From positions 32,472,029-32,536,028 of the forward strand of contig OZ025261.1 in the NCBI GenBank assembly GCA_964019135.1: a stretch of 64,000 nt of DNA, given 5' to 3'. The stretch is from Arenicola marina. Lineage: Eukaryota > Annelida > Polychaeta > Arenicolidae. The notes beneath the pieces are model-generated. The model saw only the letters and a program-made list of their open reading frames with translations. It did no database searches and was not told where the DNA came from. Shown piece by piece: positions 3,393-63,235 of the stretch (its first letter is position 1; every line of letters starts with the position of its first letter). Both the position numbers and the translations under genes were made by a program.

Positions 3393-3405
3393 GTTGTGGA
3401 CTTAC

Positions 3406-3594: not shown

Positions 3595-3643
3595 GATCAG
3601 GTCGACTTTCTGCTAGTGACTGGAAACTTGAGCTGTTGGCTGT

Positions 3644-10063: not shown

Positions 10064-10289
10064 GAGGGGCACCCACCCCTGCCTGGTATATCCATGGAAA
10101 ATCAATAAGGAAAACTGGATCTTCAGCATGTATTTCACGGGTGGATCCTGTGCTTTGGGGCCGCTTTTGAGCATGTATTTCGTGTATTTTATGGGGTCGA
10201 TGCGTATAGATGTCTGACATTTTAAAATGTACATTTTAACGGACCATCTATTTTCACCCGGTTACCGACGATAAGTCTATGCGGAAATA

Positions 10290-11124: not shown

Positions 11125-11130
11125 TTTATT
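11125..11130 (-). terminator. Poly(A) signal AATAAA
   Basis: The minus strand reads GGAAATAAAACTTC. It is 174 bases past the TGA of the last (left-edge) satellite unit, a normal 3' UTR length. The consensus 56-bp unit contains no AATAAA, so this is a natural terminator for a transcript crossing the array in the homeobox direction. Confidence 0.5.
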
Positions 11131-11234: not shown

Positions 11235-11290
11235 GACAAATGTCGCGATGACAAATGTCGCGATGAAAAATGTCGCGATGACAAATGACG
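11235..11290 (-). repeat. 15-bp tandem repeat at the array edge
   Basis: Nearly four copies of GACAAATGTCGCGAT (each containing the near-palindrome ACAAATGTCGCGA) directly abut the left end of the 56-bp array, inside the presumed 3' UTR. It is unrelated in sequence to the 56-bp unit. Confidence 0.85.
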
Positions 11291-11303
11291 TGTTCCCATG
11301 CTT

Positions 11304-11366
11304 TCACAATAAGTGGGTGACGTCCATCAGGGCCAGTGAGGCGGCGTGTTGCTTGGCTTTCACAAT
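11304..11366 (-). other. Left-edge satellite unit encoding an OAR-like C-terminus and stop
   Basis: The minus strand reads IVKAKQHAASLALMDVTHLL and then TGA (11304-11306). VKAKQHAASL matches the OAR consensus LR-KA-(K/R)-(E/Q)-H-A-A of paired-class homeodomain proteins, a motif normally found near the protein end. The unit carries changes absent from the array consensus (DVTHLL instead of DVTNSL), as expected of an edge copy that escaped homogenisation. It may be the closest surviving version of the original gene end. A bona fide 3' UTR appears to follow to the left. Confidence 0.5.
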
Positions 11367-14300
11367 GAGTTGGTGACGTCTATCAGGGCCAGTGAGGCGG
11401 CGTGTTGCCAGGCTTTCACAATGAGTTGGTGACGTCTATCAGGGCCAGTGAGGCGGCGTGTTGCCTGACTTTCACAATGAGTTGGTGACGTCTATCAGGG
11501 CCAGTGAGGCGGCGTGTTGCCTGGCTTTCACAATGCGTTGGTGACGTCTATCAGGGCCAGTGAGGCGGCGTGTTGCCTGGCTTTCACAATGAGTTGGTGA
11601 CGTCTATCAGGGCCAGTGAGGCGGCGTGTTGCCTGGCTTTCACAATGAGTTGGTGACGTCTATCACGGCCAGTGAGGCGGCGTGTTGCCTGGCTTTCACA
11701 ATGAGTTGGTGACGTCTATCAGGGCCAGTGAGGCGGCGTGTTGCCTGGCTTTCACAATGAGTTGGTGACGTCCATCAGGGCCAGTGAGGCGGCGTGTTGC
11801 CTGGCTTTCACAATGAGTTGATGACGTCTATCAGGGCCAGTGAGGCGGCGTGTTGCCTGGCTTTCACAATGAGTTGGTGACGTCCATCAGGGCCAGTGAG
11901 GCGGCGTGTTGCCTGGCTTTCACAATGAGTTGGTGACGTCCATCAGGGCCAGTGGGGCGGCGTGTTGCCAGGCTTTCACAATGAGTTGGTGACGTCCATC
12001 AGGGCCAGTGAGGCGGCGTGTTGCCTGGCTTTCACAATGAGTTGGTGACGTCCATCAGGGCCAGTGAGGCGGCGTGTTGCCAGGCTTTCACAATGAGTTG
12101 GTGACGTCTATCAGGGCCAGTGAGGCGGCGTGTTGCCTGGTTTTCACAATGAGTTGGTGACGTCCATCAGGGCCAGTGAGGCGGCGTGTTGCTTGGCTTT
12201 CACAATGAGTTGGTGACGTCTATCAGGGCCAGTGAGGCGGCGTGTTCCCTGGCTTTCACAATGAGTTGGTGACGTCCATCAGGGCCAGTGAGGCGGCGAG
12301 TTGCTTGGCTTTCACAATGAGTTGGTGACGTCCATCAGGGCCAGTGAGGCGGCGTGTTCCCTGGCTTTCACAATGAGTTGGTGACGTCTATCAGGGCCAG
12401 TGAGGCGGCGTGTTGCCTGGCTTTCACAATGAGTTGGTGACGTCCATCAGGGCCAGTGAGGCGGCGTGTTGCCTGGTTTTCACAATGAGTTGGTGAGGTC
12501 CATCAGGGCCAGTGAGGCGGCGTGTTGCCTGGCTTTCACAATGAGTTGGTGACGTCTATTAGGGCCAGTGAGGCGGCGTGTTGCCTGGCTTTCACAATGA
12601 GTTGGTGACGTCTATCAGGGCCAGTGAGGCGGCGTGTTGCCAGGCTTTCACAATGAGTTGGTGACGTCGATCAGGGCCAGTGAGGCGGCGTGTTGCCTGG
12701 CTTTCACAATGAGTGGTTGACGTCTATCAGGGCCAGTGAAGCGGCGTGTTGCCTGGCTTTTACAATGACTTGGTGACGTCTATCAGGGCCAGTGAGGCGG
12801 CGTGTTGCCTGGCTTTCACAGTGAGTTGGTGACGTCCATCAGGGCCAGTGAGGCGGCGTGTTGCCTGGCTTTTACAATGAGTTGGTGACGTCCATCAGGG
12901 CCAGTGAGGCGGAGTGTTGACTGGCTTTCACAATGAGTTGGTGACGTCCATCAGGGCCAGTGAGGCGGAGTGTTGACTGGCTTTCACAATGAGTTGGTGA
13001 CGTCCATCAGGGCCAGTGAGGCGGAGTGTTGACTGGCTTTCACAATGAGTTGGTGACGTCCATCAGGGCCAGTGAGGCAGCGTATTCCCTGGCTTTCACA
13101 ATGAGTTGGTGACGTCCATCAGGGCCAGTGAGGCGGCGTGTTGCTTGGCTTTCACAATGAGTTGGTGACGTCCATCAGGGCCAGTGAGGCGGCGTGTTGC
13201 CTGGCTTTCACAATGAGTTGGTGACGTCCATCAGGGCCAGTGAGGCGGCGTGTTGCTTGGCTTTCACAATGAGTTGGTGACGTCCATCAGGACCAGTGAG
13301 GCGGAGTGTTGACTGGCTTTCACAATGAGTTGGTGACGTCCATCAGGGCCAGTGAGGCGGAGTGTTGACTGGCTTTCACAATGAGTTGGTGACGTCCATC
13401 AGGGCCAGTGAGGCAGCGTATTCCCTGGCTTTCACAATGAGTTGGTGACGTCCATCAGGGCCAGTGAGGCGGCGTGTTGCTTGGCTTTCACAATGAGTTG
13501 GTGACGTCCATCAGGGCCAGTGAGGCAGCGTATTCCCTGGCTTTCACAATGAGTTGGTGACGTCCATCAGGGCCAGTGAGGCGGCGTGTTCCCTGGCTTT
13601 CACAATGAGTTGGTGACGTCTATCAGGGCCAGTGAGGCGGAGTGTTGACTGGCTTTCACAATGCGTTGGTGACGTCCATCAGGGCCAGTGAGGCAGCGTA
13701 TTCCCTGGCTTTCACAGTGAGTTGGTGACGTCCATCAGGGCCAGTGAGGCGGCGTGTTGCTTGGCTTTCACAATGAGTTGGTGACGTCCATCAGGGCCAG
13801 TGAGGCGGCGTGTTCCCAGGCTTTCACAATGAGTTGGTGACGTCCATCAGGGCCAGTGAGGCGGCGTGTTCCCTGGCTTTCACAATGAGTTGGTGACGTC
13901 TATCAGGGCCAGTGAGGCGGAGTGTTGACTGGCTTTCACAATGAGTTGGTGACGTCCATCAGGGCCAGTGAGGCGGCGTATTCCCTGGCCTTCACAATGA
14001 GTTGGTGACGTCCATCAGGGCCAGTGAGGCGGCGTGTTGCTTGGCTTTCACAATGAGTTGGTGACGTCTATCAGGGCCAGTGAGGCGGCGTGTTCCCTGG
14101 CTTTCACAATGAGTGGTTGACGTCCATCAGGGCCAGTGAGGCGGCGTGTTGCCTGGCTTTCACAGTGAGTTGGTGACGTCTATCAGGGCCAGTGAGGCGG
14201 CGTGTTGCCTGGCTTTCACAATGAGTTGGTGACGTCTATCAGGGCCAGTGAGGCGGCGTGTTGCCTGGCTTTCACAATGAGTTGGCGACCTCCATCAGGG

Positions 14301-17300
14301 CCAGTGAGGCGGCGTGTTGCTTGGCTTTCACAATGAGTTGGTGACGTCTATCAGGGCCAGTGAGGCGGCGTGTTGCTTGGCTTTCACAATGAGTTGGTGA
14401 CGTCCATCAGGGCCAGTGAGGCGGAGTGTTGACTGGCTTTCGCAATGAGTTGGTGACGTCCATCAGGGCCAGTGAGGCAGCGTATTCCCTGGCTTTCACA
14501 ATGAGTTGGTGACGTCCATCAGGGCCAGTGAGGCGGCGTGTTGCTTGGCTTTCACAATGAGTTGGTGACGTCTATCAGGGCCAGTGAGGCGGCGTGTTCC
14601 CTGGCTTTCACAATGAGTTGGTGACGTCCATCAGGGCCAGTGAGGCGGAGTGTTGACTGGCTTTCACAATGAGTTGGTGACGTCCATCAGGGCCAGTGAG
14701 GCAGCGTATTCCCTGGCTTTCACAATGAGTTGGTGACGTCCATCAGGGCCAGTGAGGCGGCGTGTTGCTTGGCTTTCACAATGAGTTGGTGACGTCCATC
14801 AGGGCCAGTGAGGCGGCGTGTTGCTTGGCTTTCACAATGAGTTGGTGACGTCTATCAGGGCCAGTGAGGCGGCGTGTTCCCTGGCTTTCACAATGAGTTG
14901 GTGACGTCCATCAGGGCCAGTGAGGCGGAGTGTTGACTGGCTTTCACAATGAGTTGGTGACGTCCATCAGGGCCAGTGAGGCAGCGTATTCCCTGGCTTT
15001 CACAATGAGTTGGTGACGTCCATCAGGGCCAGTGAGGCGGCGTGTTGCTTGGCTTTCACAATGAGTTGGTGACGTCTATCAGGGCCAGTGAGGCGGCGTG
15101 TTCCCTGGCTTTCACAATGAGTGGTTGACGTCCATCAGGGCCAGTGAGGCGGCGTGTTGCCTGGCTTTCACAGTGAGTTGGTGACGTCTATCAGGGCCAG
15201 AGAGGCGGCGTGTTGCCTGGCTTTCACAATGAGTGGTTGACGTCTATCAGGGCCAGTGAGGCGGCGTGTTGCCTGGCTTTCACAATGAGTTGGCGACGTC
15301 CATCAGGGCCAGTGAGGCGGCGTGTTCCTTGGCTTTCACAATGAGTTGGTGACTTTTATCAGGGCCAGTGAGGCGGCGTGTTGCTTGGCTTTCACAATGA
15401 GTTGGTGACGTCCATCAGGGCCAGTGAGGCGGAGTGTTGACTGGCTTTCACAATGAGTTGGTGACTTCTATCACGGCCAGTGAGGCGGCGTGTTGCTTGG
15501 CTTTCACAATGAGTTGGTGACGTCCATCAGGGCCAGTGAGGCGGAGTGTTGACTGGCTTTCACAATGAGTTGGTGACGACTATCAGGGCCAGTGAGGCGG
15601 CGTGTTGCTTGGCTTTCACAATGAGTTGGTGACGTCTATCAGAGCCAGTGAGGCGGCGTGTCGCCTGGCTTTCACAATGAGTTGGTGACGTCCATCAGGG
15701 CCAGTGAGGCAGCGTATTCCCTGGCTTTCACAATGAGTTGGTGACGTCCATCAGGGCCAGTGAGGCGGCGTGTTGCTTGGCTTTCACAATGAGTTGGTGA
15801 CGTCCATCAGGGCCAGTGAGGCGGAGTGTTGACTGGCTTTCACAATGAGTTGGTGACGTCTATCAGGGCCAGTGAGGCGGCGTGTTGCTTGGCTTTCACA
15901 ATGAGTTGGTGACGTCCATCAGGGCCAGTGAGGCGGAGTGTTCCCTGGCTTTCACAATGAGTTGGTGACGTCTATCAGGGCCAGTGAGGCGGCGTGTTGC
16001 TTGGCTTTCACAATGAGTTGGTGACGTCTATCAGGGCCAGTGAGGCGGCGTGTTCCCTGGCTTTCACAATGAGTTGGTGACGTCCATCAGGGCCAGTGAG
16101 GCGGCGTGTTGCTTGGCTTTCACAATGAGTTGGTGACGTCCATCAGGGCCAGTGAGGCGGCGTGTTGCTTGGCTTTCACAATGAGTTGGTGACGTCCATC
16201 AGGGCCAGTGATGCGGCGTGTTGCCTGGCTTTTACAATGACTTGGTGACGTCCATCAGGGCCAGTGAGGCGGAGTGTTGACTGGCTTTCACAATGAGTTG
16301 GTGACGTCCATCAGGGCCAGTGAGGCGGAGTTTTGACTGGCTTTCACAATGAGTTGGTGACGTCCATCAGGGCCAGTGAGGCGGAGTGTTGACTGGCTTT
16401 CACAATGAGTTGGTGACGTCCATCAGGGCCAGTGAGGCGGAGTGTTGACTGGCTTTCACAATGAGTTGGTGACGTCCATCAGGGCCAGTGAGGCAGCGTA
16501 TTCCCTGGCTTTCACAATGAGTTGGTGACGTCCATCAGGGCCAGTGAGGCGGCGTGTTGCTTGGCTTTCACAATGAGTTGGTGACGTCCATCAGGGCCAG
16601 TGAGGCGGCGTGTTCCCTGGCTTTCACAATGAGTTTGTGACGTCTATCAGGGCCAGTGAGGCGGCGTGTTGCCTGACTTTCACAATGAGTTGGTGACGTC
16701 TATCAGGGCCAGTAAGGCGGCGTGTTGCCTGGCTTTCACAATGAGTTGGTGACGTCCATCAGGGCCAGTGAGGCGGCGTGTTCCCTGGCTTTCACAATGA
16801 GTTGGTGACGTCTATCAGGGCCAATGAGGCGGAGTGTTGACTGGCTTTCACAATGAGTTGGTGACGTCCATCAGGGCCAGTGAGGCAGCGTATTCCCTGG
16901 CTTTCACAGTGAGTTGGTGACGTCCATCAGGGCCAGTGAGGCGGCGTGTTGCTTGGCTTTCACAATGAGTTGGTGACGTCCATCAGGGCCAGTGAGGCGG
17001 CGTGTTCCCTGGCTTTCACAATGAGTTGGTGACGTCCATCAGGGCCAGTGAGGCGGCGTGTTCCCTGGCTTTCACAATGAGTTGGTGACGTCTATCAGGG
17101 CCAGTGAGGCGGCGTGTTCCCTGGCTTTCACAATGAGTTGGTGACGTCCATCAGGGCCAGTGAGGCGGCGTGTTCCCAGGCTTTCACAATGAGTTGGTGA
17201 CGTCCATCAGGGCCAGTGAGGCGGCGTGTTCCCTGGCTTTCACAATGAGTTGGTGACGTCCATCAGGGCCAGTGAGGCGGCGTGTTCCCTGGCTTTCACA

Positions 17301-20300
17301 ATGAGTTGGTGACGTCCATCAGGGCCAGTGAGGCGGCGTGTTCCCTGGCTTTCACAATGAGTTGGTGACGTCCATCAGGGCCAGTGAGGCGGCGTGTTCC
17401 CTGGCTTTCACAATGAGTTGGTGACGTCCATCAGGGCCAGTGAGGCGGCGTGTTCCCTGGCTTTCACAATGAGTTGGTGACGTCCATCAGGGCCAGTGAG
17501 GCGGCGTGTTCCCTGGCTTTCACAATGAGTTGGTGACGTCCATCAGGGCCAGTGAGGCGGCGTGTTCCCTGGCTTTCACAATGAGTTGGTGACGTCTATC
17601 AGGGCCAGTGAGGCGGCGTGTTCCCTGGCTTTCACAATGAGTTGGTGACGTCCATCAGGGCCAGTGAGGCGGCGTGTTCCCAGGCTTTCACAATGAGTTG
17701 GTGACGTCCATCAGGGCCAGTGAGGCGGCGTGTTCCCTGGCTTTCACAATGAGTTGGTGACGTCCATCAGGGCCAGTGAGGCGGCGTGTTCCCTGGCTTT
17801 CACAATGAGTTGGTGACGTCCATCAGGGCCAGTGAGGCGGCGTGTTCCCTGGCTTTCACAATGAGTTGGTGACGTCCATCAGGGCCAGTGAGGCGGCGTG
17901 TTGCCTGGCTTTCACAATGAGTTGGTGACGTCTATCAGGGCCAGTGAGGCGGAGTGTTGACTGGCTTTCACAATGAGTTGGTGACGTCCATCAGGGCCAG
18001 TGAGGCAGCGTATTCCCTGGCTTTCACAATGAGTTGGTGACGTCCATCAGGGCCAGTGAGGCGGCGTGTTGCTTGGCTTTCACAATGAGTTGGTGACGTC
18101 TATCAGGGCCAGTGAGGCGGCGTGTTCCCTGGCTTTCACAATGAGTGGTTGACGTCCATCAGGGCCAGTGAGGCGGCGTGTTGCTTGGCTTTCACAGTGA
18201 GTTGGTGACGTCTATCAGGGCCAGTGAGGCGGCGTGTTGCCTGGCTTTCACAATGAGTTGGTGACGTCCATCAGGGCCAGTGAGGCGGAGTGTTGACTGG
18301 CTTTCACAATGAGTTGGTGACGTCCATCAGGGCCAGTGAGGCAGCGTATTCCCTGGCTTTCACAATGAGTTGGTGACGTCCATCAGGGCCAGTGAGGCGG
18401 CGTGTTGCTTGGCTTTCACAATGAGTTGGTGACGTCCATCAGGGCCAGTGAGGCGGCGTGTTGCTTGGCTTTCACAATGAGTTGGTGACGTCTATCAGGG
18501 CCAGTGAGGCGGCGTGTTCCCTGGCTTTCACAATGAGTTGGTGACGTCCATCAGGGCCAGTGAGGCGGAGTGTTGACTGGCTTTCACAATGAGTTGGTGA
18601 CGTCCATCAGGGCCAGTGAGGCAGCGTATTCCCTGGCTTTCACAATGAGTTGGTGACGTCCATCAGGGCCAGTGAGGCGGCGTGTTGCTTGGCTTTCACA
18701 ATGAGTTGGTGACGTCTATCAGGGCCAGTGAGGCGGCGTGTTCCCTGGCTTTCACAATGAGTTGTTGACGTCCATCAGGGCCAGTGAGGCGGCGTGTTGC
18801 CTGGCTTTCACAGTGAGTTGGTGACGTCTATCAGGGCCAGTGAGGCGGCGTGTTGCCTGGCTTTCACAATGACTTGGTGACGTCCATCAGGGCCGGTGAG
18901 GCGGCGTGTTCCCTGGCTTTCACAATGAGTGGTTGACGTCCATCAGGGCCAGTGAGGCGGCGTGTTACCTGGCTTTCACAATGAGTTGGTGACGTCTATC
19001 AGGGCCAGTGAGGCGGCGTGTTGCTTGGCTTTCACAATGAGTTGGTGACGTCTATCAGGGCCAGTGAGGCGGCGTGTTGCCTGGCTTTCACAATGAGTTG
19101 GTGACGTCCATCAGGGCCAGTGAGGCAGCGTATTCCCTGGCTTTCACAATGAGTTGGTGACGTCCATCAGGGCCAGTGAGGCGGCGTGTTGCTTGGCTTT
19201 CACAATGAGTTGGTGACGTCCATCAGGGCCAGTGAGGCGGAGTGTTGACTGGCTTTCACAATGAGTTGGTGACGTCTATCAGGGCCAGTGAGGCGGCGTG
19301 TTGCTTGGCTTTCACAATGAGTTGGTGACGTCCATCAGGGCCAGTGAGGCGGAGTGTTCCCTGGCTTTCACAATGAGTTGGTGACGTCTATCAGGGCCAG
19401 TGAGGCGGCGTGTTGCTTGGCTTTCACAATGAGTTGGTGACGTCTATCAGGGTCAGTGAGGCGGCGTGTTGCCTGGCTTTCACAATGAGTTGGTGACGTC
19501 TATCAGGGCCAGTGAGGCGGCGTGTTGCTTGGCTTTTACAATGAGTTGGTGACGTCCATCAGGGCCAGTGAGGTGGAGTGTTCCCTGGCTTTCACAATGA
19601 GTTGGTGACGTCTATCAGGGCCAGTGAGGCGGCGTGTTGCTTGGCTTTCACAATGAGTTGGTGATGTCTATCAGGGCCAGTTAGGCGGCGTGTTGCCTGG
19701 CTTTCACAATGAGTTGGTGACGTCCATCAGGGCCAGTGAGGCGGCGTGTTGCCTGGCTTTCACAATGAGTTGGTGACGTCTATCAGGGCCAGTGAGGCGG
19801 CGTGTTGCCTGGCTTTCACAATGAGTTGGTGACGTCTATCAGGGCCAGTGAGGCGGCGTGTTGCCTGGCTTTCACAATGAGTTGGTGACGTCCATCAGGG
19901 CCAGTGAGGCGGCGTGTTGCCTGGCTTTCACAATGAGTTGGTGACGTCCATCAGGGCCAGTGAGGCGGCGTGTTGCCTGGCTTTCACAATGAGTTGGTGA
20001 CGTCTATCAGGGCCAGTGAGGCGGAGTGTTGCCTGGCTTTCACAATGAGTTGGTGACGTCTATCAGGGCCAGTGAGGCGGCGTGTTGCCTGGCTTTCACA
20101 ATGAGTTGGTGACGTCCATCAGGGCCAGTGAGGCGGCGTGTTGCCTGGCTTTCACAATGAGTGGTTGACGTCCATCAGGGCCAGTGAGGCGGCGTGTTGC
20201 CTGGCTTTCACAATGAGTTGGTGACGTCCATCAGGGCCAGTGAGGCGGCGTGTTGCCTGGCTTTCACAATGAGTTGGTGAGGTCTATCAGGGCCAGTGAG

Positions 20301-22299
20301 GCGGCCTGTTGCCTGGCTTTCACAGTGAGTTGGTGACGTCTATCAGGGCCAGTGAGGCGGCGTGTTGCCTGGCTTTCACAATGAGTTAGTGAGGTCCATC
20401 AGGGCCAGTGAGGCGGCGTGTTGCCTGGCTTTCACAATGAGTTGGTGACGTCTATCAGGGCCAGTGAGGCGGCGTGTTGCTTGGCTTTCACAATGAGTTG
20501 GTGACGTCTATCAGGGCCAGTGAGGCGGCGTGTTCCCTGGCTTTCACAATGAGTGGTTGACGTCCATCAGGGCCAGTGAGGGGGCGTGTTGCTTGGCTTT
20601 CACAATGAGTTGGTGAGGTCCATCAGGGCCAGTGAGGCGGCGTGTTGCCTGGCTTTCACAATGACTTGGTGACGTCCATCAGGGCCAGTGAGGCGGCGTT
20701 TTGCTTGGCTTTCACAATGAGTGGTTGACGTCCATCAGGGCCAGTGAGGCGGCGTGTTACCTGGCTTTCACAATGAGTTGGTGACGTCTATCAGGGCCAG
20801 TGAGGCGGCGTGTTGCCAGGCTTTCACAATGAGTTGGTGACGTCTATCAGGGCCAGTGAGGCGGCGTGTTGCCTGGCTTTCACAATGAGTTGGTGACGTC
20901 TATCAGGGCCAGTGGGGCGGCGTGTTGCCTGACTTTCACAATGAGTTGGTGACGTCCATCAGGGCCAGTGAGGCGGCGTGTTGCTTGGCTTTCACAATGA
21001 GTTGGTGACGTCTATCAGGGCCAGTGAGGCGGCGTGTTGCCTGGCTTTCACAATGAGGGGTTGACGTCCATCAGGGCCAGTGAGGCGGCGTGTTGCCTGG
21101 CTTTCACAGTGAGTTGGTGACGTCTATCAGGGCCAGTGAGGCGGCGTGTTGCCTGGCTTTCACAATGAGTTGGTGACGTCTATCAGGGCCAGTGAAGCGG
21201 CGTGTTGCTTGGCTTTCACAATGAGTTGGTGACGTATATCAGGGCCAGTGAGGCGGCGTGTTGCCTGGCTTTCACAATGAGTTGGTGACGTCCATCAGGA
21301 CCAGTGAGGCGGCGTGTTGCTTGGCTTTCACAATGAGTTGGTGACGTCCATCAGGGCCAGTGAGGCGGCGTGTTGCCTGGCTTTCACAATGAGTGGTTGA
21401 CGTCCATCAGGGCCAGTGAGGCGGCGTGTTGCCTGGCTTTCACAGTGAGTTGGTGACGTCTATCAGGGCCAGTGAGGCGGCGTGTTGCCTGGCTTTCACA
21501 ATGAGTTGGTGAGGTCCATCAGGGCCAGTGAGGCGGCGTGTTGCTTGGCTTTCACAATGAGTTGGTGACGTCCATCAGGGCCAGTGAGGCGGCGTGTTGC
21601 CTGGCTTTCACAATGAGTGGTTGACGTCCATCAGGGCCAGTGAGGCGGCGTGTTGCCTGGCTTTCACAGTGAGTTGGTGACGTCTATCAGGGCCAGTGAG
21701 GCGGCGTGTTGCCTGGCTTTCACAATGAGTTGGTGACGTCTATCAGGGCCAGTGAGGCGGCGTGTTCCCTGGCTTTCACAATGAGTTGGTGACGTCCATC
21801 AGGGCCAGTGAGGCGGCGTGTTGCTTGGCTTTCACAATGAGTTGGTGACGTCCATCAGGGCCAGTGAGGCGGCGTGTTGCCTGGCTTTCACAATGAGTGG
21901 TTGACGTCCATCAGGGCCAGTGAGGCGGCGTGTTGCCTGGCTTTTACAGTGAGTTGGTGACGTCTATTAGGGCCAGTGAGGCGGCGTGTTGCCTGGCTTT
22001 CACAATGAGTTGGTGACGTCCATCAGGGCCAGTGAGGCGGCGTGTTGCTTGGCTTTCACAATGAGTTGGTGACGTCCATCAGGGCCAGTGAGGCGGCGTG
22101 TTGCCTGGCTTTCACAATGAGTGGTTGACGTCCATCAGGGCCAGTGAGGCGGCGTGTTGCCTGGCTTTCACAGTGAGTTGGTGACGTCTATCAGGGCCAG
22201 TGAGGCGGCGTGTTGCCTGGCTTTCACAATGAGTTGGTGACGTCTATCAGGGCCAGTGAGGCGGCGTGTTGCCTGGCTTTCACAATGAGTTGGTGACGT

Positions 22300-49300: not shown

Positions 49301-50649
49301 CCAGTGAGGCGGAGTGTTGCCTGGCTTTCACAATGAGTTGGTGACGTCTATCAGGGCCAGTGAGGCGGCGTGTTGCCTGGCTTTCACAATGAGTTGGTGA
49401 CGTCCATCAGGGCCAGTGAGGCGGCGTGTTCCCTGGCTTTCACAATGAGTTGGTGACGTCTATCAGGGCCAATGAGGCGGAGTGTTGACTGGCTTTCACA
49501 ATGAGTTGGTGACGTCCATCAGGGCCAGTGAGGCAGCGTATTCCCTGGCTTTCACAGTGAGTTGGTGACGTCCATCAGGGCCAGTGAGGCGGCGTGTTGC
49601 TTGGCTTTCACAATGAGTTGGTGACGTCCATCAGGGCCAGTGAGGCGGCGTGTTGCCTGGCTTTCACAATGAGTTGGTGACGTCCATCAGGGCCAGTGAG
49701 GCGGCGTGTTCCCTGGCTTTCACAATGAGTTGGTGACGTCTATCAGGGCCAGTGAGGCGGCGTGTTGCTTGGCTTTCACAATGAGTTGGTGACGTCCATC
49801 AGGGCCAGTGAGGCGGCGTGTTCCCAGGCTTTCACAATGAGTTGGTGACGTCCATCAGGGCCAGTGAGGCGGCGTGTTCCCTGGCTTTCACAATGAGTTG
49901 GTGACGTCCATCAGGGCCAGTGAGGCGGCGTGTTCCCTGGCTTTCACAATGAGTTGGTGACGTCTATCAGGGCCAGTGAGGCGGAGTGTTGACTGGCTTT
50001 CACAATGAGTTGGTGACGTCCATCAGGGCCAGTGAGGCAGCGTATTCCCTGGCTTTCACAATGAGTTGGTGACGTCCATCAGGGCCAGTGAGGCGGCGTG
50101 TTGCTTGGCTTTCACAATGAGTTGGTGACGTCTATCAGGGCCAGTGAGGCGGCGTGTTCCCTGGCTTTCACAATGAGTGGTTGACGTCCATCAGGGCCAG
50201 TGAGGCGGCGTGTTGCTTGGCTTTCACAGTGAGTTGGTGACGTCTATCAGGGCCAGTGAGGCGGCGTGTTGCCTGGCTTTCACAATGAGTTGGTGACGTC
50301 TATCAGGGCCAGTGAGGCGGCGTGTTGCCTGGCTTTCACAATGAGTTGGCGACCTCCATCAGGGCCAGTGAGGCGGCGTGTTGCTTGGCTTTCACAATGA
50401 GTTGGTGACGTCTATCAGGGCCAGTGAGGCGGCGTGTTGCTTGGCTTTCACAATGAGTTGGTGACGTCCATCAGGGCCAGTGAGGCGGAGTGTTGACTGG
50501 CTTTCACAATGAGTTGGTGACGTCCATCAGGGCCAGTGAGGCAGCGTATTCCCTGGCTTTCACAATGAGTTGGTGACGTCTATCAGGGCCAGTGAGGCGG
50601 CGTGTTCCCTGGCTTTCACAATGAGTTGGTGACGTCCATCAGGGCCAGT

Positions 50650-53600
50650 GAGGCGGCGTGTTCCCTGGCTTTCACAATGAGTTGGTGACGTCCATCAGGG
50701 CCAGTGAGGCGGAGTGTTGACTGGCTTTCACAATGAGTTGGTGACGTCCATCAGGGCCAGTGAGGCAGCGTATTCCCTGGCTTTCACAATGAGTTGGTGA
50801 CGTCCATCAGGGCCAGTGAGGCGGCGTGTTGCTTGGCTTTCACAATGAGTTGGTGACGTCCATCAGGGCCAGTGAGGCGGCGTGTTGCTTGGCTTTCACA
50901 ATGAGTTGGTGACGTCTATCAGGGCCAGTGAGGCGGCGTGTTCCCTGGCTTTCACAATGAGTTGGTGACGTCCATCAGGGCCAGTGAAACGGAGTGTTGA
51001 CTGGCTTTCACAATGAGTTGGTGACGTCCATCAGGGCCAGTGAAGCAGCGTATTCCCTGGCTTTCACAATGAGTTGGTGACGTCCATCAGGGCCAGTGAG
51101 GCGGCGTGTTGCTTGGCTTTCACAATGAGTTGGTGACGTCTATCAGGGCCAGTGAGGCGGCGTGTTCCCTGGCTTTCACAGTGAGTTGGTGACGTCTATC
51201 AGGGCCAGTGAGGCGGCGTGTTGCCTGGCTTTCACAATGACTTGGTGACGTCCATCAGGGCCGGTGAGGCGGCGTGTTCCCTGGCTTTCACAATGAGTGG
51301 TTGACGTCCATCAGGGCCAGTGAGGCGGCGTGTTACCTGGCTTTCACAATGAGTTGGTGACGTCTATCAGGGCCAGTGAGGCGGCGTGTTGCTTGGCTTT
51401 CACAATGAGTTGGTGACGTCTATCAGGGCCAGTGAGGCGGCGTGTTGCCTGGCTTTCACAATGAGTTGGTGACGTCCATCAGGGCCAGTGAGGCAGCGTA
51501 TTCCCTGGCTTTCACAATGAGTTGGTGACGTCCATCAGGGCCAGTGAGGCGGCGTGTTGACTGGCTTTCACAATGAGTTGGTGACGTCCATCAGGGCCAG
51601 TGAGGCGGAGTGTTGACTGGCTTTCACAATGAGTTGGTGACGTCTATCAGGGCCAGTGAGGCGGCGTGTTGCTTGGCTTTCACAATGAGTTGGTGACGTC
51701 CATCAGGGCCAGTGAGGCGGAGTGTTCCCTGGCTTTCACAATGAGTTGGTGACGTCTATCAGGGCCAGTGAGGCGGCGTGTTGCTTGGCTTTCACAATGA
51801 GTTGGTGACGTCTATCAGGGCCAGTGAGGCGGCGTGTTGCCTGGCTTTCACAATGAGTTGGTGACGTCTATCAGGGCCAGTGAGGCGGCGTGTTGCTTGG
51901 CTTTCACAATGAGTTGGTGACGTCCATCAGGGCCAGTGAGGCGGAGTGTTCCCTGGCTTTCACAATGAGTTGGTGACGTCTATCAGGGCCAGTGAGGCGG
52001 CGTGTTGCTTGGCTTTCACAATGAGTTGGTGACGTCTATCAGGGCCAGTTAGGCGGCGTGTTGCCTGGCTTTCACAATGAGTTGGTGACGTCCATCAGGG
52101 CCAGTGAGGCGGCGTGTTGCCTGGCTTTCACAATGAGTTGGTGACGTCTATCAGGGCCAGTGAGGCGGCGTGTTGCCTGGCTTTCACAATGAGTTGGTGA
52201 CGTCTATCAGGGCCAGTGAGGCGGCGTGTTGCCTGGCTTTCACAATGAGTTGGTGACGTCCATCAGGGCCAGTGAGGCGGCGTGTTGCCTGGCTTTCACA
52301 ATGAGTTGGTGACGTCCATCAGGGCCAATGAGGCGGCGTGTTGCCTGGCTTTTACAATGAGTTGGTGACGTCTATCAGGGCCAGTGAGGCGGAGTGTTGC
52401 CTGGCTTTCACAATGAGTTGGTGACGTCTATCAGGGCCAGTGAGGCGGCGTGTTGCCTGGCTTTCACAATGAGTTGGTGACGTCCATCAGGGCCAGTGAG
52501 GCGGCGTGTTCCCTGGCTTTCACAATGAGTGGTTGACGTCCATCAGGGCCAGTGAGGCGGCGTGTTGCCTGGCTTTCACAATGAGTTGGTGACGTCCATC
52601 AGGGCCAGTGAGGCGGCGTGTTGCCTGGCTTTCACAATGAGTTGGTGAGGTCTATCAGGGCCAGTGAGGCGGCCTGTTGCCTGGCTTTCACAGTGAGTTG
52701 GTGACGTCTATCAGGGCCAGTGAGGCGGCGTGTTGCCTGGCTTTCACAATGAGTTAGTGAGGTCCATCAGGGCCAGTGAGGCGGCGTGTTGCCTGGCTTT
52801 CACAATGAGTTGGTGACGTCTATCAGGGCCAGTGAGGCGGCGTGTTGCTTGGCTTTCACAATGAGTTGGTGACGTCTATCAGGGCCAGTGAGGCGGCGTG
52901 TTCCCTGGCTTTCACAATGAGTGGTTGACGTCCATCAGGGCCAGTGAGGCGGCGTGTTGCTTGGCTTTCACAATGAGTTGGTGAGGTCCATCAGGGCCAG
53001 TGAGGCGGCGTGTTGCCTGGCTTTCACAATGACTTGGTGACGTCCATCAGGGCCAGTGAGGCGGCGTGTTGCTTGGCTTTCACAATGAGTGGTTGACGTC
53101 CATCAGGGCCAGTGAGGCGGCGTCTTACCTGGCTTTCACAATGAGTTGGTGACGTCTATCAGGGCCAGTGAGGCGGCGTGTTGCCAGGCTTTCACAATGA
53201 GTTGGTGACGTCTATCAGGGCCAGTGAGGCGGCGTGTTGCCTGGCTTTCACAATGAGTTGGTGACGTCTATCAGGGCCAGTGAGGCGGCGTGTTGCCTGA
53301 CTTTCACAATGAGTTGGTGACGTCCATCAGGGCCAGTGAGGCGGCGTGTTGCTTGGCTTTCACAATGAGTTGGTGACGTCTATCAGGGCCAGTGAGGCGG
53401 CGTGTTGCCTGGCTTTCACAATGAGGGGTTGACGTCCATCAGGGCCAGTGAGGCGGCGTGTTGCCTGGCTTTCACAGTGAGTTGGTGACGTCTATCAGGG
53501 CCAGTGAGGCGGCGTGTTGCCTGGCTTTCACAATGAGTTGGTGACGTCTATCAGGGCCAGTGAGGCGGCGTGTTGCTTGGCTTTCACAATGAGTTGGTGA

Positions 53601-56600
53601 CGTATATCAGGGCCAGTGAGGCGGCGTGTTGCCTGGCTTTCACAATGAGTTGGTGACGTCCATCAGGGCCAGTGAGGCGGCGTGTTGCCTGGCTTTCACA
53701 ATGAGTTGGTGACGTCCATCAGGGCCAGTGAGGCGGCGTGTTGCCTGGCTTTCACAATGAGTGGTTGACGTCCATCAGGGCCAGTGAGGCGGCGTGTTGC
53801 CTGGCTTTCACAGTGAGTTGGTGACGTCTATCAGGGCCAGTGAGGCGGCGTGTTGCCTGGCTTTCACAATGAGTTGGTGAGGTCCATCAGGGCCAGTGAG
53901 GCGGCGTGTTGCTTGGCTTTCACAATGAGTTGGTGACGTCCATCAGGGCCAGTGAGGCGGCGTGTTGCCTGGCTTTCACAATGAGTGGTTGACGTCCATC
54001 AGGGCCAGTGAGGCGGCGTGTTGCCTGGCTTTCACAGTGAGTTGGTGACGTCTATCAGGGCCAGTGAGGCGGCGTGTTGCCTGGCTTTCACAATGAGTTG
54101 GTGACGTCTATCAGGGCCAGCGAGGCGGCGTGTTCCCTGGCTTTCACAATGAGTTGGTGACGTCCATCAAGGCCAGTGAGGCGGCGTGTTGCTTGGCTTT
54201 CACAATGAGTTGGTGACGTCCATCAGGGCCAGTGAGGCGGCGTGTTGCCTGGCTTTCACAATGAGTGGTTGACGTCCATCAGGGCCAGTGAGGCGGCGTG
54301 TTGCCTGGCTTTCACAGTGAGTTGGTGACGTCTATCAGGGCCAGTGAGGCGGCGTGTTGCCTGGCTTTCACAATGAGTTGGTGAGGTCCATCAGGGCCAG
54401 TGAGGCGGCGTGTTGCTTGGCTTTCACAATGAGTTGGTGACGTCCATCAGGGCCAGTGAGGCGGCGTGTTGCCTGGCTTTCACAATGAGTGGTTGACGTC
54501 CATCAGGGCCAGTGAGGCGGCGTGTTGCCTGGCTTTCACAGTGAGTTGGTGACGTCTATCAGGGCCAGTGAGGCGGCGTGTTGCCTGGCTTTCACAATGA
54601 GTTGGTGACGTCTATCAGGGCCAGTGAGGCGGCGTGTTGCCTGGCTTTCACAATGAGTTGGTGACGTCCATCAGGGCCAGTGAGGCGGCGTGTTGCCTGG
54701 CTTTCACAATGAGTTGGTGACGTCTATCAGGGCCAGTGGGGCGGCGTGTTGCCTGGCTATCATAATGAGTTGGTGACGTCCATCAGGGCCAGTGAGGCGG
54801 CGTGTTGCCTGGCTTTCACAATGAGTTGGTGACGTCCATCAGGGCCAGTGAGGCGGCGTGTTGCCTGGCTTTCACAATGAGTTGGTGACGTCTATCAGGG
54901 CCAGTGAGGCGGCGTGTTCCCTGGCTTTCACAGTGAGTTGGTGACGTCTATCAGGGCCAGTGAGGCGGCGTGTTGCCTGGCTTTCACAATGAGTTGGTGA
55001 CGTCTATCAGGGCCAGTGAGGCGGCGTGTTGCTTGGCTTGCACAATGAGTTGGTGACGTCTATCAGGGCCAGTGAGGCGGCGTGTTCCCTGGCTTTCACA
55101 ATGAGTGGTTGACGTCCATCAGGGCCAGTGAGGCGGCGTGTTGCCTGGCTTTCACAGTGAGTTGCTGACGTCTATCAGGGCCAGTGAGGCGGCGTGTTGC
55201 CTGGCTTTCACAATGAGTGGTTGACGTCCATCAGGGCCAATGAGGCGGCGTGTTGCCTGGCTTTCACAGTGAGTTGCTGACGTCCATCAGGGCCAGTGAG
55301 GCGGCGTGTTGCCTGGCTTTCACAATGAGTTGGTGACGTCCATCAGGGCCAGTGAGGCGGCGTGTTGCCTGGCTTTCACAATGACTTGGTGACGTCGATC
55401 AGGGCCAGTGAGGCGGCTTGTTGCCTGGCTTTCACAATTTGTTGGTGACGTCTATCAGTGCCAGTGAGGCGGCGTGTTGCTTGGCTTTCACAATGAGTTG
55501 GTGACGTCTATCAGGGCCAGTGAGGCGGCGTGTTGCTTGGCTTTCACAATGAGTTGGTGACGTCCATCAGGGCCAGTGAGGCGGCGTGTTGCTTGGCTTT
55601 CACAATGAGTTGGTGACGTCCATCAGGGCCAGTGAGGCGGCGTGTTGCTTGGCTTTCACAATGAGTTGGTGACGTCCATCAGGGCCAGTGAGGCGGCGTG
55701 TTCCCTGGCTTTCACAATGAGTTGATGACGTCCATCAGGGCCAGTGAGGCGGAGTGTTGACTGGCTTTCACAATGAGTTGGTGACGTCCATCAGGGCCAG
55801 TGAGGCAGCGTATTCCCTGGCTTTCACAATGAGTTGGTGACGTCCATCAGGGCCAGTGAGGCGGCGTGTTGCTTGGCTTTCACAATGAGTTGGTGACGTC
55901 CATCAGGGCCAGTGAGGCGGCGTGTTGCTTGGCTTTCACAATGAGTTGGTGACGTCTATCAGGGCCAGTGAGGCGGCGTGTTCCCTGGCTTTCACAATGA
56001 GTTGGTGACGTCCATCAGGGCCAGTGAAACGGAGTGTTGACTGGCTTTCACAATGAGTTGGTGACGTCCATCAGGGCCAGTGAAGCAGCGTATTCCCTGG
56101 CTTTCACAATGAGTTGGTGACGTCCATCAGGGCCAGTGAGGCGGCGTGTTGCTTGGCTTTCACAATGAGTTGGTGACGTCTATCAGGGCCAGTGAGGCGG
56201 CGTGTTCCCTGGCTTTCACAATGAGTTGTTGACGTCCATCAGGGCCAGTGAGGCGGCGTGTTGCCTGGCTTTCACAGTGAGTTGGTGACGTCTATCAGGG
56301 CCAGTGAGGCGGCGTGTTGCCTGGCTTTCACAATGAGTGGTTGACGTCCATCAGGGCCAGTGAGGCGGCGTGTTACCTGGCTTTCACAATGAGTTGGTGA
56401 CGTCTATCAGGGCCAGTGAGGCGGCGTGTTGCTTGGCTTTCACAATGAGTTGGTGACGTCTATCAGGGCCAGTGAGGCGGCGTGTTGCCTGGCTTTCACA
56501 ATGAGTTGGTGACGTCCATCAGGGCCAGTGAGGCAGCGTATTCCCTGGCTTTCACAATGAGTTGGTGACGTCCATCAGGGCCAGTGAGGCGGCGTGTTGA

Positions 56601-59600
56601 CTGGCTTTCACAATGAGTTGGTGACGTCCATCAGGGCCAGTGAGGCGGAGTGTTGACTGGCTTTCACAATGAGTTGGTGACGTCTATCAGGGCCAGTGAG
56701 GCGGCGTGTTGCTTGGCTTTCACAATGAGTTGGTGACGTCCATCAGGGCCAGTGAGGCGGAGTGTTCCCTGGCTTTCACAATGAGTTGGTGACGTCTATC
56801 AGGGCCAGTGAGGCGGCGTGTTGCTTGGCTTTCACAATGAGTTGGTGACGTCTATCAGGGCCAGTGAGGCGGCGTGTTGCCTGGCTTTCACAATGAGTTG
56901 GTGACGTCTATCAGGGCCAGTGAGGCGGCGTGTTGCTTGGCTTTCACAATGAGTTGGTGACGTCCATCAGGGCCAGTGAGGCGGAGTGTTCCCTGGCTTT
57001 CACAATGAGTTGGTGACGTCTATCAGGGCCAGTGAGGCGGCGTGTTGCTTGGCTTTCACAATGAGTTGGTGACGTCTATCAGGGCCAGTTAGGCGGCGTG
57101 TTGCCTGGCTTTCACAATGAGTTGGTGACGTCCATCAGGGCCAGTGAGGCGGCGTGTTGCCTGGCTTTCACAATGAGTTGGTGACGTCTATCAGGGCCAG
57201 TGAGGCGGCGTGTTGCCTGGCTTTCACAATGAGTTGGTGACGTCTATCAGGGCCAGTGAGGCGGCGTGTTGCCTGGCTTTCACAATGAGTTGGTGACGTC
57301 CATCAGGGCCAGTGAGGCGGCGTGTTGCCTGGCTTTCACAATGAGTTGGTGACGTCCATCAGGGCCAATGAGGCGGCGTGTTGCCTGGCTTTTACAATGA
57401 GTTGGTGACGTCTATCAGGGCCAGTGAGGCGGAGTGTTGCCTGGCTTTTACAATGAGTTGGTGACGTCTATCAGGGCCAGTGAGGCGGCGTGTTGCCTGG
57501 CTTTCACAATGAGTTGGTGACGTCCATCAGGGCCAGTGAGGCGGCGTGTTGCCTGGCTTTCACAATGAGTGGTTGACGTCCATCAGGGCCAGTGAGGCGG
57601 CGTGTTGCCTGGCTTTCACAATGAGTTGGTGACGTCCATCAGGGCCAGTGAGGCGGCGTGTTGCCTGGCTTTCACAATGAGTTGGTGAGGTCTATCAGGG
57701 CCAGTGAGGCGGCCTGTTGCCTGGCTTTCACAGTGAGTTGGTGACGTCTATCAGGGCCAGTGAGGCGGCGTGTTGCCTGGCTTTCACAATGAGTTAGTGA
57801 GGTCCATCAGGGCCAGTGAGGCGGCGTGTTGCCTGGCTTTCACAATGAGTTGGTGACGTCTATCAGGGCCAGTGAGGCGGCGTGTTGCTTGGCTTTCACA
57901 ATGAGTTGGTGACGTCTATCAGGGCCAGTGAGGCGGCGTGTTCCCTGGCTTTCACAATGAGTGGTTGACGTCCATCAGGGCCAGTGAGGGGGCGTGTTGC
58001 TTGGCTTTCACAATGAGTTGGTGAGGTCCATCAGGGCCAGTGAGGCGGCGTGTTGCCTGGCTTTCACAATGACTTGGTGACGTCCATCAGGGCCAGTGAG
58101 GCGGCGTGTTGCTTGGCTTTCACAATGAGTGGTTGACGTCCATCAGGGCCAGTGAGGCGGCGTGTTACCTGGCTTTCACAATGAGTTGGTGACGTCTATC
58201 AGGGCCAGTGAGGCGGCGTGTTGCCAGGCTTTCACAATGAGTTGGTGACGTCTATCAGGGCCAGTGAGGCGGCGTGTTGCCTGGCTTTCACAATGAGTTG
58301 GTGACGTCTATCAGGGCCAGTGAGGCGGCGTGTTGCCTGACTTTCACAATGAGTTGGTGACGTCCATCAGGGCCAGTGAGGCGGCGTGTTGCTTGGCTTT
58401 CACAATGAGTTGGTGACGTCTATCAGGGCCAGTGAGGCGGCGTGTTGCCTGGCTTTCACAATGAGGGGTTGACGTCCATCAGGGCCAGTGAGGCGGCGTG
58501 TTGCCTGGCTTTCACAGTGAGTTGGTGACGTCTATCAGGGCCAGTGAGGCGGCGTGTTGCCTGGCTTTCACAATGAGTTGGTGACGTCTATCAGGGCCAG
58601 TGAGGCGGCGTGTTGCTTGGCTTTCACAATGAGTTGGTGACGTATATCAGGGCCAGTGAGGCGGCGTGTTGCCTGGCTTTCACAATGAGTTGGTGACGTC
58701 CATCAGGGCCAGTGAGGCGGCGTGTTGCCTGGCTTTCACAATGAGTTGGTGACGTCCATCAGGGCCAGTGAGGCGGCGTGTTGCCTGGCTTTCACAATGA
58801 GTGGTTGACGTCCATCAGGGCCAGTGAGGCGGCGTGTTGCCTGGCTTTCACAGTGAGTTGGTGACGTCTATCAGGGCCAGTGAGGCGGCGTGTTGCCTGG
58901 CTTTCACAATGAGTTGGTGAGGTCCATCAGGGCCAGTGAGGCGGCGTGTTGCTTGGCTTTCACAATGAGTTGGTGACGTCCATCAGGGCCAGTGAGGCGG
59001 CGTGTTGCCTGGCTTTCACAATGAGTGGTTGACGTCCATCAGGGCCAGTGAGGCGGCGTGTTGCCTGGCTTTCACAGTGAGTTGGTGACGTCTATCAGGG
59101 CCAGTGAGGCGGCGTGTTGCCTGGCTTTCACAATGAGTTGGTGACGTCTATCAGGGCCAGTGAGGCGGCGTGTTCCCTGGCTTTCACAATGAGTTGGTGA
59201 CGTCCATCAAGGCCAGTGAGGCGGCGTGTTGCTTGGCTTTCACAATGAGTTGGTGACGTCCATCAGGGCCAGTGAGGCGGCGTGTTGCCTGGCTTTCACA
59301 ATGAGTGGTTGACGTCCATCAGGGCCAGTGAGGCGGCGTGTTGCCTGGCTTTCACAGTGAGTTGGTGACGTCTATCAGGGCCAGTGAGGCGGCGTGTTGC
59401 CTGGCTTTCACAATGAGTTGGTGAGGTCCATCAGGGCCAGTGAGGCGGCGTGTTGCTTGGCTTTCACAATGAGTTGGTGACGTCCATCAGGGCCAGTGAG
59501 GCGGCGTGTTGCCTGGCTTTCACAATGAGTGGTTGACGTCCATCAGGGCCAGTGAGGCGGCGTGTTGCCTGGCTTTCACAGTGAGTTGGTGACGTCTATC

Positions 59601-60690
59601 AGGGCCAGTGAGGCGGCGTGTTGCCTGGCTTTCACAATGAGTTGGTGACGTCTATCAGGGCCAGTGAGGCGGCGTGTTGCCTGGCTTTCACAATGAGTTG
59701 GTGACGTCCATCAGGGCCAATGAGGCGGCGTGTTGCCTGGCTTTCACAATGAGTTGGTGACGTCTATCAGGGCCAGTGGGGCGGCGTGTTGCCTGGCTAT
59801 CATAATGAGTTGGTGACGTCCATCAGGGCCAGTGAGGCGGCGTGTTGCCTGGCTTTCACAATGAGTTGGTGACGTCCATCAGGGCCAGTGAGGCGGCGTG
59901 TTGCCTGGCTTTCACAATGAGTTGGTGACGTCTATCAGGGCCAGTGAGGCGGCGTGTTCCCTGGCTTTCACAGTGAGTTGGTGACGTCTATCAGGGCCAG
60001 TGAGGCGGCGTGTTGCCTGGCTTTCACAATGAGTTGGTGACGTCTATCAGGGCCAGTGAGGCGGCGTGTTGCTTGGCTTGCACAATGAGTTGGTGACGTC
60101 TATCAGGGCCAGTGAGGCGGCGTGTTCCCTGGCTTTCACAATGAGTGGTTGACGTCCATCAGGGCCAGTGAGGCGGCGTGTTGCCTGGCTTTCACAGTGA
60201 GTTGCTGACGTCTATCAGGGCCAGTGAGGCGGCGTGTTGCCTGGCTTTCACAATGAGTGGTTGACGTCCATCAGGGCCAGTGAGGCGGCGTGTTGCCTGG
60301 CTTTCACAGTGAGTTGCTGACGTCCATCAGGGCCAGTGAGGCGGCGTGTTGCCTGGCTTTCACAATGAGTTGGTGACGTCCATCAGGGCCAGTGAGGCGG
60401 CGTGTTGCCTGGCTTTCACAATGACTTGGTGACGTCGATCAGGGCCAGTGAGGCGGCTTGTTGCCTGGCTTTCACAATTTGTTGGTGACGTCTATCAGTG
60501 CCAGTGAGGCGGCGTGTTGCTTGGCTTTCACAATGAGTTGGTGACGTCTATCAGGGCCAGTGAGGCGGCGTGTTGCTTGGCTTTCACAATGAGTTGGTGA
60601 CGTCCATCAGGGCCAGTGAGGCGGCGTGTTGCTTGGCTTTCACAATGAGTTTGTGACGTCCATCAGGGCCAGTAAGGCGGCGTGTTGCTT
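50650..60690. repeat. Two adjacent 90-unit (5,040-bp) higher-order blocks
   Basis: Rare variants recur exactly 5,040 bases apart: TGAAACGG at 50987 and 56027, ATGAGGGG at 53421 and 58461, ATCATAATGAG at 54761 and 59801. The blocks are about 50.65-55.65 and 55.69-60.69 kb. They differ at a few sites and by compensating gain and loss of whole units near 51.2/56.3 kb. This is a recent tandem duplication of a large array segment. Confidence 0.85.
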
Positions 60691-60919
60691 GGCTTTCACA
60701 ATGAGTTGGTGACGTCCATCAGGGCCAGTGAGGCGGCGTGTTGCCTGGCTTTCACAATGAGTTTGTGACGTCCATCAGGGCCAGTGAGGCGGCGTGTTGC
60801 TTGGCTTTCACAATGAGTTGGTGACGTCCATCAGGGCCAGTGAGGCGGCGTGTTGCTTGGCTTTCACAATGAGTTTGTGACGTCCATCAGAGCCAGTGAG
60901 GCGGCGTGTTGCTTGGCTT

Positions 60920-61059
60920 TCACAATGAGTTGGTGACGTCTATCTCGTAGGCCTGGAGCGGAAGCAGCGCCTGTGAGGACGAGGCCAGCGTCGACGATGC
61001 CGTTGCCAGGGTAGTTGGGGACGTCACGTTGCGATGTTCTGGTACAAACTCCCCGATGC
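60920..61059 (-). CDS. Paired-class homeobox gene, predicted terminal coding exon
   Basis: On the minus strand a good acceptor (TTTTACATATTTCAG) precedes 61059. Read in phase 1 the exon gives 45 residues: IGEFVPEHRNVTSP, a Ser/Thr/Ala-rich stretch (TTLATASSTLASSSQ), then ALLPLQAYEIDVTNSL and TGA at 60920-60922. That composition is typical of homeodomain protein tails, and GC at third positions is about 71%, higher than in the neighbouring open frame. The final six codons and stop lie inside the first, partial satellite unit, which is in the same frame as DVTNSL-stop in the unit consensus. The second open frame runs on into KAKQHAASLALM, so an OAR-containing reading is possible with a phase-2 donor. 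The order to the homeodomain exon is right; the splice pair is inferred. Confidence 0.5.
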
Positions 61060-63134: not shown

Positions 63135-63235
63135 GTCTGTAGTGGGGACCCGCCGTACAGGGTAGCGTACGTCATAAACGGCTGAAGATGCTTCTCTCGT
63201 TTCCGCCATTTCGCACGACGATTTTGAAACCAGAC
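63079..63235 (-). CDS. Paired-class homeobox gene, exon with end of homeodomain
   Basis: After an ATTACAG acceptor the minus strand encodes VWFQNRRAKWRKREK, homeodomain recognition helix residues 47-61, with Gln at position 50 and the DNA-contacting Asn at 51. It continues HLQPFMTYATLYGGSPLQT. The intron between residues 46 and 47 is the standard position for paired-class genes. WRKREK plus Q50 excludes Otx/Pitx/Dmbx (Lys50) and points to the Arx/Alx/Vsx/Homeobrain-type group; I cannot choose a subfamily. The residues after PLQT run straight into the 69-bp repeat. A donor TAG|GTGGAG at 63079 (phase 1) fits the terminal exon. GTAGGT at 63083 (phase 0) is the alternative but leads to an early stop. 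Homeodomain helices 1-2 must be upstream, beyond the window. Confidence 0.85.

What the first reader, a model, noticed from the sequence alone, without database searches (positions are those of the whole stretch)
11284..60944. 49.6-kb satellite whose 56-bp unit encodes a homeobox OAR motif
Seen: every consensus unit, on the minus strand, reads KAKQHAASLAL(M/I)DVTNSL-stop. Common variants change K to R or Q to E, giving AREHAASL, also close to the OAR consensus. Known: OAR motifs lie near the C-terminus of paired-class homeodomain proteins. Inferred: a satellite directly beside a paired-class homeobox exon that encodes this motif is unlikely by chance, so the unit probably derives from the gene's own last codons. 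A coding-exon end amplified several hundred-fold into a satellite would be highly unusual.
Basis: partly seen in the sequence, partly recalled or inferred. Interest (0 to 1): 0.93.

Follow-up and report, generated by a model that had tools for sequence, protein, structure and literature searches.

The report
Homeobox gene tail amplified into satellite
In an unidentified animal, what looks like the last stretch of a developmental control gene, including its stop signal, has been copied about 886 times head to tail into a 50-kb block at the gene's own end; origin from the gene's own OAR motif is likely, but relatives could not be checked.

Summary
The array is real. It holds 886 full 56-bp units plus 40 bp (about 11289-60944), with no indels. 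On the minus strand the units read KA[K/R][Q/E]HAASLAL[M/I]DVTNSL-stop; 885 of 886 end in the stop. It abuts the apparent last coding exon (first base 61059) of a minus-strand paired-class homeobox gene, whose third-helix exon begins at 63235. That exon reads into the array in the same frame, ending ...LQAYE-IDVTNSL-stop. None of five poly(A) hexamers scanned lies inside the array; the first AATAAA is 159 bp beyond it.

Only the second half of an OAR motif is present. The conserved first half (SSIAxLR) was not found outside the array, and Pfam OAR does not hit.

Best reading: the gene's own last codons were tandemly duplicated in place, probably between two TGA triplets 56 bp apart, and the gene has since lost its intact OAR. 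Unit variation shows no protein constraint. Orthologues could not be checked; no genome is held for this window.

The parts
63083..63235 (-). Homeobox exon: homeodomain from residue 47 (VWFQNRRAKWRKREK) followed by HLQPFMTYATLYGGSPLQT..., up to the first GTAGGT donor-like site at 63082; acceptor ...TTTTCCATTACAG just before 63235
   Evidence: Pfam Homeodomain 22.6 bits, E 9.4e-05, just under the 22.9 cut-off, profile 45-57/57; best PDB relative ALX4, then aristaless and PITX2 among others
61166..63133 (-). 69-bp minisatellite, 28.5 copies, between the homeobox exon and the last exon, probably intronic; 28 GTAGGT donor-like sites at 69-bp spacing (first spacing 70)
   Evidence: TRF; donor positions and phases
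60945..61059 (-). Unique part of the apparent last coding exon; acceptor TTTTACATATTTCAG before 61059; open frame IGEFVPEHRNVTSPTTLATASSTLASSSQALLPLQAYE
   Evidence: splice sites judged by eye, no transcript data
60921..60944 (-). Partial first unit (24 nt), read in the exon's frame as IDVTNSL; predicted stop codon at 60920-60922
11305..60920 (-). 886 full 56-bp units, KA[K/R][Q/E]HAASLAL[M/I]DVTNSL-stop, no indels, with large exact internal duplications
11289..11304 (-). Diverged partial unit at the far end (16 nt, 13 of 16 matching the unit, counted by eye)
   Evidence: Sequence
11235..11287 (.). Short 15-bp tandem repeat directly after the array
   Evidence: TRF
11125..11130 (-). AATAAA, the first AATAAA downstream of the predicted stop codon on the gene strand, 159 bp past the array
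   Evidence: of five hexamers scanned, none occurs inside the array on the gene strand

Best explanation
The satellite arose in place from the end of the coding sequence of the adjoining paired-class homeobox gene. The ancestral last exon probably ended ...(L/M)-KA(K/R)(Q/E)HAASLAL(I/M)DVTNSL-stop: the second half of an OAR motif, a short tail and the stop. A tandem duplication between the TGA formed by (C/T/A)TG-AAA, the Leu/Met-Lys codons of the OAR, and the TGA stop gives a period of exactly 56 bp and accounts for the Val that now precedes Lys. Unequal exchange and segmental duplication then amplified the unit to 886 copies. During this the gene-proximal edge was eroded, so the gene lost its intact OAR and now most likely ends ...LQAYE-IDVTNSL-stop. 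The array lies between stop codon and poly(A) signal and would be carried as a roughly 50-kb 3' UTR if the gene is transcribed to that signal. Shown: array, location, frame agreement, absence of the scanned poly(A) hexamers, unconstrained variation, half-OAR similarity. Inferred: splicing, the ancestral sequence, the TGA breakpoint, loss of the first OAR half, and transcription.
For: Half-OAR score of the consensus unit reached by 36 of 2e6 mononucleotide shuffles and 53 of 2e6 first-order Markov sequences (six frames), by 0 of 14,213 flank 56-mers, and, for the KAKQ unit, by 0-3 of 100,000 shuffles with each of the ten recalled OARs left out in turn. The match lies in the reading frame in which the last exon enters the array. 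11 of the 12 GTAGGT sites inside the homeobox open frame have phase 1, which leads into exactly that frame; the other, donor 1, has phase 0 and leads to an early stop. OAR-like peptide, tail and stop take 57 nt of a 56-bp unit that overlaps itself by one base. None of the scanned poly(A) hexamers in the array; AATAAA 159 bp after it. Variation fits neutral repeat evolution: 22 synonymous, 51 nonsynonymous, 4 stop among 77 variants, against 42, 119, 7 of 168 possible. Exact duplicate blocks of 8 or more units cover 617 of 886 units.
Against: The diagnostic first OAR half was not found outside the array: 0 hits to the strict pattern and 4 to a relaxed one, none followed by KA, so an extra deletion must be assumed. 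Pfam OAR gives no hit to the unit, alone or as 12-fold concatenations; controls show these tests to be weak, but they do not support the claim. The OAR profile rests on ten motifs recalled from memory. The finding was picked from a scan, so the shuffle frequencies overstate the surprise. The array is 886 units plus 40 bp, so at least one edge has been altered under any simple model. AATAAA occurs about once per 1.6 kb outside the array on this strand (9 in the window), so one within 159 bp is only a roughly 10% coincidence. No orthologue, transcript or second copy of the locus was available.
Confidence: 0.7

Rival explanations
1. The unit comes from the gene's end, but not from an OAR: the ancestral protein ended ...LQAYEIDVTNSL-stop as it does now, and the unit is six or seven last codons, the stop and about 32-35 bp of 3' UTR. 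The OAR-like reading of the UTR part is chance.
For: The exon reads straight into IDVTNSL-stop with no OAR before it; no deletion at the gene-proximal edge is needed; no Pfam OAR hit.
Against: Half-OAR score reached by about 2 in 100,000 randomised units over six frames, and the match also falls in the one frame that runs stop-free into DVTNSL. The far edge is cut at a different unit position from the near edge, so this model too needs an edge change.
Confidence: 0.17
2. An ordinary satellite or transposon-borne repeat that inserted or expanded beside the gene; frame continuity and OAR likeness are both chance.
For: The flanks are rich in other tandem and inverted repeats and hold a LINE-like fragment. 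One review says that a significant proportion of satellite source sequences are transposons and other repeats (passages of PMC12692304).
Against: It needs the half-OAR match, the frame agreement and the position between last codon and poly(A) signal all to be coincidence. The unit matches nothing else in the flanks (one 13-base hit at E 3.3), and no Rfam family reached its gathering score in the window.
Confidence: 0.1
3. The array is kept for a function, for example as a long structured or protein-binding 3' UTR, or for repeated OAR-like peptides.
For: No indel in 886 units with 77 distinct substitution variants is striking.
Against: Variation is not clearly constrained in any of six frames: 14-22 of 77 variants synonymous against 36-43 of 168 possible; each unit ends in a stop and 56 is not a multiple of three; unit RNA folds no better than shuffles (z 0.69, 0.50, -0.01). 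Recent segmental amplification can explain uniformity in part.
Confidence: 0.03

Closest known systems
OAR motif (Pfam PF03826) of paired-class homeodomain proteins such as ARX, SHOX, PITX and ALX
   Same: VKA[KR][QE]HAA matches OAR positions 12-19; C-terminal position in the apparent last coding exon; neighbouring paired-class homeodomain exon
   Different: First half SSIAxLR absent; below Pfam detection; present as 886 stop-separated copies instead of one
Genic minisatellites (VNTRs) in coding exons or 3' UTRs (recalled, no call)
   Same: Tandem array inside a gene, formed in place from gene sequence
   Different: Longer than the cases I recall (49.7 kb here); unit spans last codons plus stop and is not a multiple of three, so the array cannot be translated through
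D4Z4 / DUX4 macrosatellite (listed; opening lines of abstracts seen)
   Same: Long tandem array associated with a homeobox gene
   Different: Each D4Z4 unit carries a whole double-homeobox gene; here only 18 codons and the stop
Gene-derived satellite DNAs such as the 5S rDNA-derived PcP190 (listings and abstract openings, references)
   Same: Satellite that can be traced to a gene
   Different: Those come from RNA genes that are already tandem; here a protein-coding exon end, presumed single-copy

Membership tests
OAR motif (PF03826) | Pfam OAR profile match above the 20.1-bit gathering score | tested here: not met
   No OAR hit to unit peptides or array frames or to 12-fold concatenations of 3 unit peptides. 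Three intact recalled OARs scored 34.5-38.6 bits; their truncated forms were missed in 2 of 3 cases and the third scored 10.1
OAR motif (PF03826) | Conserved first half S-[IL]-A-x-L-R | tested here: not met
   Six-frame scan of the window outside 11284-60800: 0 hits to the strict pattern, 4 to a relaxed one, none followed by KA; the 17-column profile gives the unit only 6-8 bits
OAR motif (PF03826) | Second half [LM]-K-A-[KR]-[EQ]-H-[AS]-x | tested here: met
   VKA[KR][QE]HAA scores 17.2-19.1 bits for three unit types, within the leave-one-out range 12.9-24.1 of ten recalled OARs; reached by 6-53 of 2e6 random units, depending on unit type and null. Position 12 is Val, not Leu or Met
OAR motif (PF03826) | Lies near the C-terminus of a paired-class homeodomain protein | tested here: inconclusive
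   Array starts at the end of the apparent exon that follows a homeodomain exon with Gln50 and WRKREK; splicing is inferred, and the predicted protein itself ends before any OAR-like stretch
Satellite DNA | Long array of head-to-tail units | tested here: met
   886 full units, 49.7 kb
Satellite DNA | Copies at further loci in the genome | not testable with these tools
   No genome is held for this window
Exon-derived satellite | Single-copy source in orthologous genes | not testable with these tools
   None of the collections on hand is of animal genomes, and no genome is held for this window

The most novel reading that the evidence does not exclude
A working developmental regulator turned its own C-terminal regulatory motif and stop codon into a 49.7-kb satellite that remains inside its terminal exon. 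The gene thereby lost its OAR and now makes a transcript with a 3' UTR of about 50 kb, made of 886 fossil copies of the lost motif's second half.
Probability: 0.3. Interest if true: 0.78.

Novelty: new variant of a known kind. Interest (0 to 1): 0.5.

Why it matters
Satellites are often traced to transposons or to other repeats. One that can be traced to the last codons of a regulatory gene would show satellite birth at its point of origin, give a likely breakpoint (TGA to TGA), and offer a natural case in which a conserved C-terminal motif was lost. It also raises a direct question: can a homeobox gene be expressed with 50 kb of satellite between its stop codon and its poly(A) signal?

Tried and rejected
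Pfam on unit peptides and on the gene's frames: no OAR. As a more sensitive Pfam test I scanned 12-fold concatenations of three unit peptides, five shuffles and one reversed peptide: OAR in 0 of 3 units and 0 of 6 controls. The matching positive controls with recalled half-OARs gave OAR in 2 of 4 (PITX2, PRRX1; not SHOX, ARX), and a hypothetical Leu version of the unit gave 10.3 bits, below the cut-off. Concatenation also produced many spurious families, shuffles included, so I call this test uninformative and do not count it for the claim.

Looking for amino-acid strings of OARs and of the homeobox exon in papers gave 0 papers. Literature searches for exon-derived satellites and terminal-exon minisatellites (51, 0, 1, 20 and 4 papers, of which 20, 0, 1, 20 and 4 were listed) showed nothing that I recognised as like this locus; I saw listings and openings of abstracts only, plus passages of three papers, the first and third of these found through the OAR search. 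Exact 27-base scans of the viral and prokaryote collections gave 0 matches, as expected for an animal sequence and not informative. Search of the window's own genome was not possible. An RNA-structure explanation was dropped (Rfam 0 matches; no tRNA). The idea of selection on the repeated peptide was dropped.
Full report
What is there. TRF reports one array at 11289-60944. Cut into units on the minus strand, it holds 886 full 56-bp units (11305-60920), every step exactly 56 bp, plus 24 nt of a unit at the gene end and 16 diverged nt at the far end. There are 127 distinct units; 71 of 886 match the consensus exactly and the most diverged differs at 6 positions. 885 of 886 have the terminal stop and 18 of 886 an internal one. 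Exact duplicate blocks of 8 or more units, the longest 44 units, cover 617 of 886, so much of the array grew by recent segmental duplication.

The gene. Read on the minus strand, an exon begins at 63235 after a good acceptor and encodes the homeodomain from residue 47 (VWFQNRRAKWRKREK; numbering recalled). Pfam Homeodomain gives 22.6 bits over positions 45-57, just under its 22.9 cut-off, and the best-scoring solved structures are ALX4, aristaless and PITX2. Gln50 and WRKREK suit the paired-like class (family knowledge). A 69-bp minisatellite follows (61166-63133) with 28 GTAGGT donor-like sites. A second acceptor precedes 61059. The exon from there to the array is open in two frames. One reads IGEFVPEH...LQAYE and runs into the array as IDVTNSL-stop, in the same frame as the unit's OAR-like peptide. 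The other reads HRGVC...DRRHQLIVKAKQHAASLALMDVTNSL-stop and would keep the half-OAR, but needs a phase-2 donor; of the 28 GTAGGT sites one has phase 0 and 27 have phase 1. Donor 1 (phase 0) would lead to an early stop (...LYQNIAT); donors 2-12, which lie before the stop of the homeobox open frame, lead into the IGEFVPEH frame. This agreement is suggestive, not proof, since no transcript is available.

The far side. None of five poly(A) hexamers scanned occurs within the array on the gene strand. The first AATAAA is at 11130, 159 bp past the array. With 9 AATAAA on this strand in the window, all in the roughly 14 kb outside the array, such closeness has a chance of roughly 10%. The array thus appears to sit between stop codon and poly(A) signal.

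Is it an OAR? In the Pfam match of a truncated recalled OAR (ARX) model positions 12-19 are LKAKEHAA; the unit has VKA[KR][QE]HAA. The first half, SSIAxLR, is missing: upstream of Val the unit's own frame reads HQLI, and a six-frame scan outside the array gave 0 hits to the strict pattern and 4 to a relaxed S[ILV]xx[LI]R pattern, none followed by KA. A 17-column profile gives the unit 6-8 bits against 27.8-45.5 for recalled OARs left out in turn. The half profile gives 17.2, 18.0 and 19.1 bits for the KARQ-M, KAKQ-M and KARE-I units, inside the leave-one-out range of 12.9-24.1. Among 2,000,000 mononucleotide shuffles 36, 22 and 6 reach those scores; among 2,000,000 Markov sequences 53, 25 and 12; among 14,213 flank 56-mers none; among 10,000 dinucleotide shuffles none reached the KARQ or KARE score. 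Leaving out any one of the ten recalled OARs leaves 0-3 of 100,000 for the KAKQ unit. The profile was built from motifs recalled from memory, and the finding was chosen from a large scan, so I discount these numbers. Pfam itself does not call the unit an OAR, and its controls with halved OARs are mixed: one of three found, below cut-off, when single, two of four when concatenated.

How it may have formed. In 9 of the 10 recalled OARs the residue before Lys is Leu or Met; codons CTG, TTG or ATG before AAA create a TGA. The distance from that TGA to a TGA stop after DVTNSL is exactly 56 bp. A duplication joining the two would produce the present period, replace Leu or Met by the GTG codon now seen, and make OAR-half, tail and stop fill one unit. 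This is inference. It predicts an intact first half before the first unit; that is not found, so a later deletion at the gene-proximal edge must be added. The array's 40-bp excess over whole units suggests independently that at least one edge has changed.

Selection and function. Variants in the OAR frame are 22 synonymous, 51 nonsynonymous and 4 stop of 77, against 42, 119 and 7 of 168 possible; in the other five frames 14-22 of 77 are synonymous against 36-43 of 168 possible. Unit RNA folds no better than shuffles. Transitions occur at 3 of 6 CpG sites and 35 of 50 others, so CpG decay is not evident. I see no sign that the copies act as protein or RNA elements. Loss of the OAR need not kill the gene: its removal from sea urchin Alx1 did not markedly affect embryonic rescue (passages of PMC5758115), while other work treats it as a regulatory switch (passages of PMC6425703).

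Judgement. I put 0.7 on origin from the gene's own OAR end, 0.17 on origin from the gene's end with a chance OAR likeness, 0.1 on an unrelated satellite and 0.03 on a maintained function.

Noticed in passing
window 61166-63133: A 69-bp minisatellite between the homeobox exon and the last exon repeats a GTAGGT splice-donor-like site 28 times; donors 2-12 all keep the same phase, so choosing another of them would add 23 residues per unit without a frame shift.
   Followed up: partly
window 11289-60944: No indel in 886 units despite 77 distinct substitution variants, which is fewer indels than I would expect from ordinary neutral change; unexplained and not tested against a null.
   Followed up: partly
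window 7691-7955 and 9813-10066: Inverted repeats of about 240-265 bp, 87-91% alike and 2.4 kb end to end, built of TTACATTTGAGGGAAAAAAG-like subrepeats; may be the ends of a mobile element.
   Followed up: no
window 243-360 and 1295-1412: A perfect 118-bp inverted repeat.
   Followed up: no
window 1870-2031 (-): Fragment with a Pfam zf-RVT match (E 1.1e-06), probably the remnant of a LINE-like element.
   Followed up: partly
window 3319-3612 (-): Open frame with a hydrophobic start and HIPGPLGLPILGNSL, which reminds me of a cytochrome P450 N-terminus (recalled; Pfam gave no match).
   Followed up: partly
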